From: Oceanidesulfovibrio indonesiensis | Lineage (GTDB): Bacteria > Desulfobacterota > Desulfovibrionia > Desulfovibrionales > Desulfovibrionaceae | NCBI RefSeq assembly: GCF_007625075.1 | Contig: NZ_QMIE01000001.1 | Span: 124,001-188,000 of the forward strand | Length of the DNA: 64,000 nucleotides | Direction of reading: 5' to 3' | Shown here: one piece after another, positions 7,679 through 47,735 of the stretch | Layout of the letters: every line of letters begins with the position of its first letter | Numbering within the stretch: the stretch's first letter is position 1 | Made by a program: the position numbers and the translations under genes | The notes under the pieces: model-generated | The model's input: only the letters and a program-made list of their open reading frames with translations | Databases searched by the model: none | Told to the model about the DNA's origin: nothing

Positions 7679-8512
7679 TCATCGCTCCGGAAGGGGAACG
7701 CTCTCGATCCCTATGGTGCGTTCGACGCGCATGGTCAATGGAGCTTTGGCGCTGCAAAGCGTGTGTGCGATTTCAAGGCTCCCTTCGAGGGTGCGCTTGG
7801 TCAGGATGACTTCCGCCTTGCTCAATCCATCAAGAAGCGGCGCGTCGCTTCTCATTCGTTTCCCATGCGCTGAAAGCTGGACATATTTTTTCGGAATGGA
7901 GTGATCTTCACCCAGCATCAGCTCAGGCGAGGACTTCACAAAGCGCATAAATTTTTCGCCAACATCTGGAGCAAACCTGATTATCACAAGATAATAATAT
8001 GTTCCGAATGTGTTCTCCCACCAAATAGTACTTTTCTTCTTTATGATTTCAATTGTCGCTATGTCCTTGCATGACAATTGAAAAGCAGGAAACTCGAGTG
8101 CCTCCGGATTGTTCATGGGGCTCGTAATATCAGGTGGAGGTACAGGAGAGACAGCGAGCAAAGACGGACACATGTCCCTTGCAGTCTTGTCGGCTGCTTC
8201 TCTATTTGAGAATGGTATACTTGGTATATATTCTGTAGACGAATAAACATGGTCTTTCAGAAGAACTGTCCCCTTGTGCACAATGGATACGACGTTCCCT
8301 GCGTTAGCGGATGTGAACTGTTGAAAATCTCGACGTCCTTCGCCAGATTCCACAAAGTTGAGTCGAGCCTTGCCCTGAAATTCATATACATACAGCTTTT
8401 CAAGATGAGTACATGTTATTTCAAAATGCGGTTCAGCGAGTGCTGGCTCAACAGGCACCAAAAAATATATAAAAGCAAAGGCATATAGTTGCATGCTAGT
8501 ATTGAATTTCAT
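7679..8512 (-). CDS. Hypothetical secreted protein of AT-rich island
   Basis: About 277 aa and not recognised. The frame begins at 8557, but the ATG at 8512 (MKFNTSMQLY) has a GGAAAAG-like ribosome site and begins a clear Sec signal peptide with a probable cleavage after PALA. The mature part holds a few cysteines (ITCTHLEK, DMCPS, LSCKD, HTLCS) that could form disulfides in the periplasm, and no known motif. The start overlaps the end of the upstream gene by 17 bp, so the two are translationally coupled. Base composition is clearly more AT-rich than the surroundings, suggesting horizontal acquisition. A partner or immunity role for the upstream product is possible but unproven. Confidence 0.6.
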   Translation of the reverse strand: MKFNTSMQLYAFAFIYFLVPVEPALAEPHFEITCTHLEKLYVYEFQGKARLNFVESGEGRRDFQQFTSANAGNVVSIVHKGTVLLKDHVYSSTEYIPSIPFSNREAADKTARDMCPSLLAVSPVPPPDITSPMNNPEALEFPAFQLSCKDIATIEIIKKKSTIWWENTFGTYYYLVIIRFAPDVGEKFMRFVKSSPELMLGEDHSIPKKYVQLSAHGKRMRSDAPLLDGLSKAEVILTKRTLEGSLEIAHTLCSAKAPLTMRVERTIGIESVPLPER

Positions 8513-9113
8513 AGAAAACTTTTCCATTTTCTGAGCACATTTCATGCATATCAACACGCCAGTTAAATTCGCTAAGAAATGGAATGGTGATTGTCATGAC
8601 ATGTGGGGACGAAGGAATAAGGTGCCCTGTTTGTCGTTCTTCTTTGTGGACTCCACCTGCATACACGTTCACATAAACACAAGGAAATGCAATGCCTGTA
8701 AATTTTTCAGCAGAAATCAAGCTGGTGAAGGTGATTTTGATGGAGTTTGAGCCATCAAAAGTTTCCATAGCGCCAAACGAGCCATCTAGATCTCCATAAA
8801 TATAACGAGGCAACAAAGGTCCTGTTGGCATGGAGTCAGGGTGTGTCCAGAATGGACCTTCTTTCTGGTTTGTTGCGTTCTGCTTGATGTTAGATCTAAT
8901 CTGTCCTTCATTTATCGGGATAACCATGCACTTGCAATTTGGGTGTGGCCGGTCCGGGATGTCGTTGTAGAAATACTTCCGGCCGTCACGTGCCGTGCAG
9001 TCGATGCACGCGCCGGGAGTCGCCCTCCATCGCCAGAGAGTCAACGGGTTTTTGGTATAGCGTTCCTTGTCGGCGGCGGTCAACAATGGCTTGTCCGGTC
9101 TTCTTTTCGGCAT
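8496..9113 (-). CDS. Protein with MuF/phage-head-like Cys-His motif
   Basis: 205 aa from the ATG at 9113, which follows GAGGGG. The first 60 residues read ACIDCTARDG ... RPHPNCKC, the CxxC ... DG ... HPNCxC signature of the C-terminal part of phage Mu gpF/SPP1 gp7-like minor head proteins, a probable zinc knuckle. The rest (FWTHPDSMPTGPLL onwards) is unrecognised and looks beta-rich. No other phage genes are nearby. The gene is AT-rich, coupled to a downstream secreted protein and preceded by a structured repeat. It may be a cargo gene or domain reuse from phage; the function is unknown. Confidence 0.6.
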   Translation of the reverse strand: MPKRRPDKPLLTAADKERYTKNPLTLWRWRATPGACIDCTARDGRKYFYNDIPDRPHPNCKCMVIPINEGQIRSNIKQNATNQKEGPFWTHPDSMPTGPLLPRYIYGDLDGSFGAMETFDGSNSIKITFTSLISAEKFTGIAFPCVYVNVYAGGVHKEERQTGHLIPSSPHVMTITIPFLSEFNWRVDMHEMCSENGKVFYEIQY

Positions 9114-9152: not shown

Positions 9153-9278
9153 TATTACTGGGAGCAAGAAATTGTAAACTTCTTGCTCCCGCGGCGTTCG
9201 CCGCGCGGCCCCGCCTGGAGCGTGGCCGTCCTTATCGCTGAGGCGCGAAAATGTAAAAATTTACTGCTCCCAGTAATA
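9153..9278. repeat. 126-bp element with terminal inverted repeats (copy A)
   Basis: The element is bounded by TATTACTGGGAGCA (9153-9166) and its exact inverse complement (9265-9278). An inner perfect 11-bp hairpin, GGGAGCAAGAA/TTCTTGCTCCC, spans 9160-9190, and a GC-rich middle contains GGCCCCGCCTGGAGCGTGG. A second, inverted copy lies at 45788-45911. It contains no coding potential. The size and ends resemble a miniature inverted-repeat element, but no convincing target duplication is visible; a structured RNA or REP-like element is the alternative. Confidence 0.85.
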
Positions 9279-9404: not shown

Positions 9405-9869
9405 CTATTGCACATTCCTGCGCTGGCCCAGATGCAGGGCCACGAAGGCGTCCAGGCGGCGGAGCAGTTCGGGCGTGCTTTCAAAGCGGACGGCGTCCGG
9501 AATGTTGGCCGGCTTGATCTTGTACTCACCGGTCTGAGACTTGGGCCAGGCGTTGCGGCGCAGCAGGGCTTCGACTTCAACGCGCGGCAGGCACCAGCCC
9601 CGGCCCGGGCCGTCGAGCAGGAGCAGGGCGTAGGGCTCGCCGTCGAATGTATCGAGGCTGCGTTGCTTCACACCCCAGAAGGGTACGCGGAGGCGGCTGG
9701 TGCGCACGAGGCACCAGAGCCGGCCGCGGTAGAGCAGGGCGCTTCCCGGTGCGAGCCGTTCCAGCCGGTCGTGGCCGCTATACAGCGTGCGGGGCGCGAT
9801 GGCGTCGCATGCCAACCAGCGCAGGGCGCGTGCGGGGGCGGTGGTCTGTGGCGAGATCATGTTTGCCAT
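9405..9869 (-). CDS. Hypothetical protein
   Basis: 154 aa with normal GC-rich codon use for the region; not recognised. The sequence is soluble in character, rich in Arg and Leu, and without signal peptide, membrane segment or obvious catalytic motif. Phrases such as GSALLYRGRLWCLVRTSRLRV suggest a beta-rich N-terminal half and a helical C-terminus. A second Met at residue 4 could be the true start. It lies 55 bp downstream of the HD-GYP gene on the same strand and may be cotranscribed with it. Its length and uninterrupted frame support a real gene. Confidence 0.55.
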   Translation of the reverse strand: MANMISPQTTAPARALRWLACDAIAPRTLYSGHDRLERLAPGSALLYRGRLWCLVRTSRLRVPFWGVKQRSLDTFDGEPYALLLLDGPGRGWCLPRVEVEALLRRNAWPKSQTGEYKIKPANIPDAVRFESTPELLRRLDAFVALHLGQRRNVQ

Positions 9870-44232: not shown

Positions 44233-45675
44233 CTAGCTGACCCACGCGGCGAGAACCGATTCCACCAGGGCCGCGGCCTGGGCCAGCGACTCCTGCGAGG
44301 CGTTCTCGTTCTCCACGTAGAGCTGGATGAACCCGGCCAGAGGACGCGCGCATGGAGGGCGTCTTTTCCAGAAATCCTCAGGCAGCGGCGCCGGTACTGC
44401 GGATTTTCTGATGAAGTCCGTTAACTCCCGGAGCAGGGTGCGCAAAGCGCGGAGCAGCGCGCGGTCGAGCCTGGGGAAACATTCGGCCAGACGAGTGCGG
44501 GTGGCGCGGAGTCGTTCCTGGTCCCATAGACCGAAATGGGCGCCGAACGCCGCGTGCCAGAAGAGGCTGACCAGCTCCCGCGCCGCGGCCGGTGGTCGTC
44601 CGGCCAGGGATGTGATGCGATGGAGGCCGTCCGCATCCCTGCCTGTGGCGAAGAATCGGATTCTGCGGAAATTGACGGATTCCAGCGAGTTGTTCTTGCG
44701 GAGCGCGGAGGGGACAGGCGCCTCCACGAGCTTCTGCGCGAGCATGGCCGTGCGTCCTGGTTGGAACCGATCCCGGCAGGCATGGTCGAGGCCGGCATGG
44801 CATTCCCAGCAGCCAACGCAGGACAGGGACGTCTGGAGCACGGCGTGGCCCGGGGAATGCGGCGCCGTCTCCCGCGGGTTCACCGGCCCCATGGAGAGGT
44901 CCATGGTCTTCACGCCGGTCCAGGACATGAGGTGCATGGGGCCGGTGTCCGGGGTGATGAACTGGGCGAGGCCCTGGCCCGCCTTGACCAGTCCGGGAAG
45001 GTCGAACCTGCCGGCCAGGTTGGGCGGTTTGGAGCGGCTGAGCTTGCGCGCCTCCCGGGCAAGGGGGACGTCATCCGGTCCGCCGAAGAACATGGGCCGC
45101 AACCCCCGGTGCACCAGGGCGTCGGCCAACTGCGCGAAGAAACCGGGGTCGGGTCGCTTTTCCGGCTGGCTCGCGCCGACGAACAATCCCACGCTGCGGC
45201 TTTCCGAACCGAGGTGCCGGGGCGGAGGAAAACGCGTCGCCGCGATGTCGGCCAGGGGGATGACGTCGAGGGCGTTCATGTCCGCCCAGTGGAAGCGGTT
45301 GTGGCGGTTGTTGTGCACCAGACTGGCGCGGTAGAGCTGGAAGTTGCCGCGCACGTAGGAGGCGCCGTCCTTTTCCACCGGCCCCACGACCTCCTCGGCC
45401 CGAACCTGGCCGGCGAGCCTTGCCGCCTCGGGCCTGTGGCTCAGGTTGACGACCAGTTCGTAACGCTGGTCGAGCATCCCTTGCAGGCTGGACCAGGACA
45501 GGTAGGTGGCCGGCGGACTGACGGGCACGAGCTGTCTGGAAAACCGCTCTTCGGCCGCCACCCAGATGGGATGTCCGGGAAATCGCCGGCCCAGCCACAG
45601 GAGCAACGGGAAGGTGAGGATGATGTCCCCCATGCGCTGGAGCTGGAGGACGAGGATGGGGGGCTTGCCTGCCAT
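44233..45675 (-). CDS. Glycosyltransferase family 9 (heptosyltransferase-like)
   Basis: 480 aa. The N-terminal half has the GT9 features LVLQLQRMGDIILTFPLLLWL and GLFVGASQPEKRPD, and the nucleotide-sugar half ITPDTGPMHLMSWTG, as in ADP-heptose transferases. A CVGCWECHAGLDHAC cysteine cluster follows. The C-terminal ~150 residues are helical and not part of the usual GT9 fold. It lies among flagellar genes downstream of a second glycosyltransferase. Flagellin or LPS glycosylation are both possible; neither is proven by the sequence. Confidence 0.85.
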   Translation of the reverse strand: MAGKPPILVLQLQRMGDIILTFPLLLWLGRRFPGHPIWVAAEERFSRQLVPVSPPATYLSWSSLQGMLDQRYELVVNLSHRPEAARLAGQVRAEEVVGPVEKDGASYVRGNFQLYRASLVHNNRHNRFHWADMNALDVIPLADIAATRFPPPRHLGSESRSVGLFVGASQPEKRPDPGFFAQLADALVHRGLRPMFFGGPDDVPLAREARKLSRSKPPNLAGRFDLPGLVKAGQGLAQFITPDTGPMHLMSWTGVKTMDLSMGPVNPRETAPHSPGHAVLQTSLSCVGCWECHAGLDHACRDRFQPGRTAMLAQKLVEAPVPSALRKNNSLESVNFRRIRFFATGRDADGLHRITSLAGRPPAAARELVSLFWHAAFGAHFGLWDQERLRATRTRLAECFPRLDRALLRALRTLLRELTDFIRKSAVPAPLPEDFWKRRPPCARPLAGFIQLYVENENASQESLAQAAALVESVLAAWVS

Positions 45676-45787: not shown

Positions 45788-45911
45788 TATTACTGGGAGC
45801 AGAAAATTCTTACATTTTCGCGCCCCAGTTATAAGGACGCCACGCTCCAGGCGGGGCCACGCGGCGAATGCCGCGGGAGCAAGAAGTTAAAATTTCTTGC
45901 TCCCAATAATA
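45788..45911. repeat. 124-bp element with terminal inverted repeats (copy B)
   Basis: An inverted copy of the element at 9153-9278. The ends are TATTACTGGGAGCA (45788-45801) and TGCTCCCAATAATA (45898-45911, one mismatch to a perfect inverse). It shares the internal block CCACGCTCCAGGCGGGGCC exactly with copy A read on the other strand, and the GGGAGCAAGAA/TTCTTGCTCCC stem. It occupies the gap between two glycosyltransferase genes. No open frame. Confidence 0.85.

Positions 45912-45968: not shown

Positions 45969-47735
<1,767 letters not shown>

What the first reader, a model, noticed from the sequence alone, without database searches (positions are those of the whole stretch)
9153..9278. 126-bp element with 14-bp terminal inverted repeats, inverted partner 36 kb away
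The ends TATTACTGGGAGCA are a perfect inverted pair, and the copy at 45788-45911 read on the other strand has the same ends, the same 19-bp core CCACGCTCCAGGCGGGGCC and the same 11-bp internal hairpin. Both copies sit in gaps between co-directional genes. Differences between copies fall largely in single-stranded parts, which hints at selection on structure or at a young miniature transposable element.
Basis: seen in the sequence. Interest (0 to 1): 0.6.

Follow-up and report, generated by a model that had tools for sequence, protein, structure and literature searches.

The report
Four-hairpin miniature mobile element, Desulfovibrionaceae
The 126-base sequence is one of about fifty scattered copies of a tiny gene-less jumping DNA element found patchily in one family of sulfate-reducing bacteria; it inserts at TA dinucleotides and keeps a four-hairpin shape while its letters change, which matters because that shape seems tied to how it spreads, by an enzyme not yet found.

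Summary
The 126-bp element at 9153-9278 is one of at least 48 full-length or near-full-length dispersed copies in its own genome. Borders are sharp and flanks unrelated. Related copies occur in 13 of 288 genomes of the same family (Desulfovibrionaceae), in 9 of 44 genera. Orthologous sites in a sister species lack it. Two nested-insertion contexts, plus a symmetric WNW-TA-WNW target preference over 82 sites, show insertion at TA with TA duplication. It carries no gene and lies in random orientation relative to genes: best explained as a non-autonomous MITE of the ERIC/RUP kind.

Two features go beyond a plain MITE. Four serial hairpins are held by compensatory change across genera (20 of 36 pairs), while pairing between the terminal repeats does not covary. 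The two long hairpins also occur alone as 45-46-bp units with the same ends. Private mutations in individual copies hit stems and loops equally, so structure is kept in source lineages, not resident copies; a housekeeping RNA is unlikely. No IS630-type, DDE_Tnp_1 or Y1 transposase explains the family; the mobilising enzyme is unknown. Template-switch repair of palindromes may explain part of the covariation.

The parts
9153..9278 (-). Copy 1 of the element, full length; reading direction 'hairpin A first' is the minus strand
   Evidence: 126 bp, 40 scored places in the genome at 87-100% identity, flanks unrelated
9265..9278 (-). Terminal inverted repeat at the A side; outermost TA (9277-9278) is one copy of the duplicated target TA
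9153..9166 (+). Terminal inverted repeat at the B side; outermost TA (9153-9154) is the other copy of the target TA
9233..9278 (-). Hairpin A (imperfect 46-bp palindrome, near-invariant GGAGCAGAAAAT...ATTTTCG with bulged A); occurs alone elsewhere in the genome (L104, L110)
9207..9227 (-). Hairpin 2 (GGCC..GC-loop-GC..GGCC), compensatory changes between lineages
9191..9204 (-). Hairpin 3 (GCGGCGAACGCCGC), the most conserved stem
9160..9190 (-). Hairpin B (11-bp perfect stem GGGAGCAAGAA), 9 of 12 pairs with two-sided changes between genera; occurs alone elsewhere (L103, L122)
45788..45911 (+). Copy 2 of the element (124 bp), hairpin A first on the plus strand, i.e. opposite to the flanking minus-strand genes
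45788..45833 (+). Hairpin A of copy 2
45875..45904 (+). Hairpin B of copy 2

Best explanation
It is a non-autonomous miniature inverted-repeat transposable element (MITE) of the Desulfovibrionaceae. A transposase supplied in trans recognises the TATTAC(Y/A)SGGAGC ends, cuts the element out and pastes it at TA dinucleotides in a WNW-TA-WNW context, duplicating the TA. Shown here: many dispersed copies, sharp ends, absence at orthologous sites, TA target and duplication, no gene inside, neutral decay of copies, and structure held by compensatory change between source lineages. Inferred: cut-and-paste by a DDE-type enzyme acting in trans, and that the serial hairpins (as extruded cruciforms or single-strand hairpins) help mobilisation, so only well-folded copies become sources. 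Part of the covariation may come from template-switch correction of palindromes.
For: Forty places scored at 87-100% identity, of 105 first-look candidates; 52 distinct matches held, 48 full or near-full length. Thirty copies share no flank. Orthologous intergenic regions of L003, L015 and L019 in sister genome G001 lack it. Nested insertions: L054 inside a decayed A unit at GCAGA-TA-ATTACTGCG; in G059, four copies sit at the same TA in the loop of another repeat, whose empty copies (L174, L175) read GCGTATT..AATACGC, so removing the element with one TA restores the stem. Over 82 sites, A/T is enriched at -3, -1, +1 and +3 (60, 69, 58, 54 of 82; background 0.43; p 3e-5 to 2e-14) and not at -2 or +2, the symmetric pattern of a TA-duplicating enzyme. 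Local hairpins covary: 68 two-sided cells against 20.6 shuffled; across genera 20 of 36 pairs, score 0.370 against 0.179. Terminal-repeat pairing does not: 75 of 500 shuffles reach it. Private mutations fall equally on stems and loops. Orientation relative to genes is random: 12 same, 11 opposite, 9 divergent, 5 convergent.
Against: No transposase with matching ends was found. DDE_3 (IS630) is absent from the own genome and from 7 of 8 other carriers. DDE_Tnp_1 is absent from 4 carriers. No inward-facing end pair encloses a transposase in the held loci, although the own assembly has 330 contigs and may lack one. In G031 (L150) the two terminal repeats differ while the hairpins stay, so the ends alone may not define the substrate. 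Base-exact empty sites in a sister species could not be resolved because intergenic DNA has diverged too far.
Confidence: 0.86

Rival explanations
1. REPIN/RAYT-like element: two inverted hairpin units moved as single-stranded DNA by a Y1 (HUH) transposase that recognises hairpins.
For: Two long imperfect hairpins in inverted arrangement, solo units and a conserved bulged A in hairpin A. REPINs are likewise doublets of palindromes with decayed singlets (PMC3116915).
Against: No Y1_Tnp in the own genome or in 6 of 8 other carriers; present in G006 and G031 but without these hairpins next to the genes. The target preference is symmetric round a TA that looks duplicated; IS200/IS605-type insertion follows one flanking tetranucleotide and makes no duplication (general knowledge).
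Confidence: 0.06
2. A functional structured RNA or cis-regulatory element (such as an mRNA 3' or 5' element) that spread and is kept by the host.
For: Strong compensatory change across genera and stable folds.
Against: Private mutations hit stems and loops equally. G-U and A-C departures are nearly balanced, 38 to 27. Orientation relative to genes is random. Loci are empty in the sister species. Distribution is patchy, with closely related genomes lacking it. No Rfam family matches.
Confidence: 0.05
3. The hairpins carry no function: covariation arises because DNA polymerase template-switching keeps palindromes perfect, and the element is an ordinary MITE recognised only by its ends. (A sub-question of the best explanation, not exclusive of it.)
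For: Exact spacer inversion of hairpin B in L016 and L029 and simultaneous arm homogenisation of hairpin A in L042. Arm homogenisation and spacer inversion are the described signature of template switching (PMC8604942), and the process is reported to maintain RNA hairpins (PMC8794818).
Against: Hairpin A keeps an imperfect interior bulge (GGAGC-A-GAAA opposite TTTC-GY-) in nearly all lineages, which homogenisation would erase. Singletons show no excess repair of stems. Terminal repeats too might be expected to homogenise, and they do not covary.
Confidence: 0.35

Closest known systems
ERIC / IRU / RU-1 (Enterobacteria, 127 bp)
   Same: Nearly the same length; terminal inverted repeats ending in TA, target duplication, intergenic, many copies, stable fold, no known transposase (PMC2229807, PMC10969869)
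   Different: Unrelated host group. The fold is serial local hairpins that covary, whereas bacterial repeats other than CIR are described there as a stem made by 5'-3' end pairing; here end pairing does not covary. Solo hairpin units exist.
RUP (Streptococcus pneumoniae, 107 bp, proposed to be moved by IS630-Spn1)
   Same: Short, TA target, TIR-ended, non-coding, many copies (PMC2229807)
   Different: RUP shares ends with an IS630 in its host; no IS630 transposase was found in the own genome or in 7 of 8 other carriers
CIR (Caulobacter/Brucella intergenic repeats)
   Same: Two long hairpin arms joined by a linker, conserved fold (PMC2229807)
   Different: CIR is listed without TIR and with target duplication unknown; this element has 14-bp ends and a TA duplication. 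The CIR GANTC motif was not looked for here.
REPIN with RAYT (Pseudomonas and others)
   Same: Inverted pair of palindromic units, mobile as a doublet, single units present (PMC3116915)
   Different: No RAYT/Y1 gene in most carriers; TA target duplication; solo units here keep both full ends at unrelated loci, unlike decayed REP singlets

Membership tests
Bacterial MITE | Short, non-coding, multi-copy and dispersed | tested here: met
   126 bp; at least 48 copies in the own genome; unrelated flanks
Bacterial MITE | Terminal inverted repeats | tested here: met
   14-bp ends, perfect in copy 1; 86.5% of end-pair cells matched over 45 copies
Bacterial MITE | Target-site duplication | tested here: met
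   TA in two nested contexts and symmetric target logo over 82 sites; not resolved base-exactly in orthologues
Bacterial MITE | Ends shared with an autonomous element that mobilises it | tested here: inconclusive
   No end pair enclosing a transposase; IS630, DDE_Tnp_1 and Y1 families do not fit; other transposase families not searched, draft assembly
ERIC | Sequence homology to the ERIC consensus / enterobacterial host | not tested
   No sequence comparison to ERIC was run; there is no Rfam match and hosts are Desulfovibrionaceae
REPIN | Host encodes a RAYT (Y1 transposase) flanked by the same palindromes | tested here: not met
   None in the own genome; 2 of 8 other carriers have Y1 genes, without these ends beside them
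Structured non-coding RNA | Compensatory base changes in a consensus structure | tested here: met
Structured non-coding RNA | Conserved position or orientation relative to genes; purifying selection in each copy | tested here: not met
   random orientation, empty orthologous sites, equal singleton rates in stems and loops
Any Rfam family | Covariance-model match | tested here: not met
   no match at gathering score; only chance-level weak hits

The most novel reading that the evidence does not exclude
A TA-inserting DNA element whose mobilisation depends on folded hairpins, not only on its terminal repeats. Each 45-46-bp hairpin with TATTAC ends would be a minimal mobile unit, several of which combine into the 126-bp element, and it would be moved by a TA-specific transposase of a kind not yet recognised in these bacteria.
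Probability: 0.27. Interest if true: 0.68.

Novelty: new variant of a known kind. Interest (0 to 1): 0.43.

Why it matters
Small ERIC-like repeats have been known for decades, yet how they move and why they fold is mostly unproven. This family offers about fifty young copies in one genome, relatives in at least nine genera, solo hairpin units and internal empty sites. That makes 'is the fold needed for movement, or only a by-product of palindrome repair?' directly testable. It is also a marker and mutational load in sulfate-reducing bacteria for which the held papers describe no such repeat family.

Tried and rejected
Hairpin-apex target preference: a few sites look like terminator apices (L024, L026, the G059 nested sites), but flank-swap controls show only a weak excess in G000 (4.5 crossing pairs against 3.5) and none in the other genomes; not claimed. 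IS630 parent: searched and not found. RAYT: not found in most carriers. DDE_Tnp_1 parent: two fragments in G000, none in G006, G059, G027 or G023; their loci lack the ends. Composite elements between two end copies: the genes enclosed are an ABC transporter, a methyltransferase, a haem oxygenase and a TPR/response-regulator protein, i.e. ordinary genes. Vehicles on phages, plasmids or viral contigs: no match. Base-exact empty sites in G001: regions aligned, but intergenic DNA too diverged. Scan of genome contigs with the exact own core: no hit; the looser pattern hit only one MAG, which is G006. A first cross-genus alignment (A2) mixed both strands and was discarded.

Full report
Observation. 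The sequence at 9153-9278 begins and ends with a perfect 14-bp inverted repeat, TATTACTGGGAGCA. The second copy, 45788-45911 on the other strand, aligns at 115 of 126 positions, with one mismatch in one end. Both lie between genes on the minus strand. Copy 1 is upstream of a gene starting near 9113. Copy 2 lies between a glycosyltransferase gene (45969-47711) and a heptosyltransferase-family gene (44233-45675). Read as 'hairpin A first', copy 1 points with the flanking transcription and copy 2 against it.

It is a dispersed repeat. A search of the own genome (4.29 Mb, 330 contigs) scored 40 matching places at 87-100% identity out of 105 first-look candidates. With further loci, 52 distinct matches are held, 48 of them full or near-full length. 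Thirty aligned copies share nothing outside the TATTAC...GTAATA borders, so longer duplicated segments are excluded.

It is mobile. In the sister genome G001, the regions orthologous to loci L003, L015 and L019 are present and contiguous but lack the element; intergenic DNA there is too diverged for base-exact junctions. Junctions come from nested insertions. In L054 the element sits in a decayed hairpin-A unit, GCAGA-TA-ATTACTGCG. In genome G059 four copies sit at the same TA in the loop of another dispersed hairpin repeat. Empty copies of that repeat (L174:1640-1790; L175:1185-1330, minus) read GCGTATTTGCAATACGC and GCGTATCAAAGAATACGC. Removing the element together with one TA from the filled copies restores GCGTATTACAATACGC and GCGTATAAAGACATACGC. 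These four share a 3-bp shortened B end and may not all be independent insertions.

Target preference. Reconstructing 82 insertion sites with one TA shows A/T enrichment at -3, -1, +1 and +3 (60, 69, 58 and 54 of 82, background 0.43, p from 2e-14 to 3e-5) and none at -2 or +2. A symmetric pattern round a single TA is what a TA-duplicating DDE enzyme gives; Sleeping Beauty, a Tc1/mariner element, also shows a palindromic target logo (PMC5801840). This also argues against one-sided IS200/IS605-type insertion.

Structure. The alignment of 45 copies from three genomes folds into four serial hairpins: A (46 bp, with a conserved bulged A), 2, 3 and B. Two-sided pair changes number 68 cells against 20.6 in shuffles and 6-21 in slid controls. 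Adding copies from G059, G023, G027, G031 and G183 raises this to 20 of 36 pairs, covariation score 0.370 against 0.179; that alignment was fitted to the model and leans towards it. Pairing of the two terminal repeats with each other shows no covariation beyond shuffles. For example, in G006 the left end changes from TATTAC to TATTAA together with its partner inside hairpin A, while the right end stays.

Where the constraint acts. Private mutations in 48 G000 copies are equally frequent in stems (0.75 per site) and loops (0.72), and G-U departures (38) do not clearly outnumber A-C ones (27). Resident copies therefore look neutral and the structure is kept along source lineages. (Counting all polymorphism, including shared subfamily changes, loops vary more than stems: 0.078 against 0.045, p = 0.013.) Orientation relative to genes is random (12 same, 11 opposite, 9 divergent, 5 convergent; rough gene calls). 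A housekeeping RNA predicts the opposite on both counts.

Modularity. The same ends bound solo hairpins at unrelated loci: B alone (L103, L122), A alone (L104, L110), a third hairpin C alone (L109; L115:3218; L117:3042), and a 93-bp B+C form (L106). L085 is a 108-bp copy in which much of hairpin 3 and adjoining sequence is lost.

Template switching. Hairpin B's spacer is exactly inverted in L016 and L029, and both arms of hairpin A are homogenised in L042. These are the described signatures of polymerase template switching in inverted repeats (PMC8604942), which can maintain hairpins without selection (PMC8794818, abstract). The persistence of the bulged A across genera suggests that not all of the structure is explained this way. 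This is inference.

Distribution. A covariance model finds the element in 13 of 288 genomes of the same family, in 9 of 44 genera. It is patchy: G059 and G061 carry it, G060 of the same genus does not. No match in plasmid, phage or viral collections or in Rfam.

Mobiliser. IS630-type DDE_3 is absent from G000 and from 7 of 8 other carriers. Y1_Tnp is absent from G000 and from 6 of 8. DDE_Tnp_1 gives two fragments in G000, one hit in G001 and none in four other carriers. No pair of inward-facing ends encloses a transposase in the held loci. The enzyme is unknown; loss of the parent, a draft-assembly gap or a transposase family not searched here are all open.

Comparison. By length, ends, TA duplication and intergenic habit it works like ERIC and RUP (PMC2229807; PMC10969869). 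By serial hairpin arms it resembles CIR, which the same review contrasts with the other repeats. RUP's link to an IS630 is not matched here. The held papers describe no such family in Desulfovibrio or relatives; most subscription literature is not held, so novelty is provisional.

Verdict. A real, ordinary-in-kind but well-resolved MITE family with an unusual conserved multi-hairpin design. Mobile element: near certain. TA duplication: likely. Fold required for movement: open.

Noticed in passing
L174:1640-1790; L175:1185-1330 (minus); L162, L175, L176 flanks (genome G059); similar ends near L085 and L182: A second, unrelated dispersed hairpin repeat (about 110-120 bp, core GCAAGGCGC..GACGCGTATT..AATACGCGAGG.., ends like GGCTGTTCAAAAAG / CTTTTTCAACAGTCTG) serves as insertion target for the element; G000 and G001 loci show the same terminal motif.
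   Followed up: partly
L162, L175 (two places), L176 (genome G059): Four copies with the same 3-bp shortened B end sit at the identical TA in the loop of that repeat: repeated insertion at one site, or spread of the composite.
   Followed up: partly
L103:2983, L122:2960, L104:3073, L110:3015, L109:3001, L115:3218, L106:3071: Solo 45-46-bp palindromes (hairpins A, B or a third type C) and a 93-bp B+C form with the same TATTAC ends at unrelated loci.
   Followed up: partly
L016/L083 and L029/L043 (hairpin B), L042:1494-1619 (hairpin A): Exact spacer inversion and simultaneous arm homogenisation inside element hairpins, signatures of polymerase template switching.
   Followed up: yes
L024 (G000:C1:366965-370091), position 1501: The element sits at the apex of a long terminator-like hairpin (GAATCCCGGAACGAGGCGCGCA-TA-TGCGTGTGCTTCGTCCCGGGATTC), splitting it in two.
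   Followed up: yes
L150:1501-1624 (genome G031): A divergent copy in which the two terminal repeats no longer match each other while all four hairpins are intact.
   Followed up: no
window 8496-9113 and 9405-9869 (minus): The two ORFs flanking copy 1 have no Pfam match; the first looks by eye like a phage-type or orphan protein.
   Followed up: no
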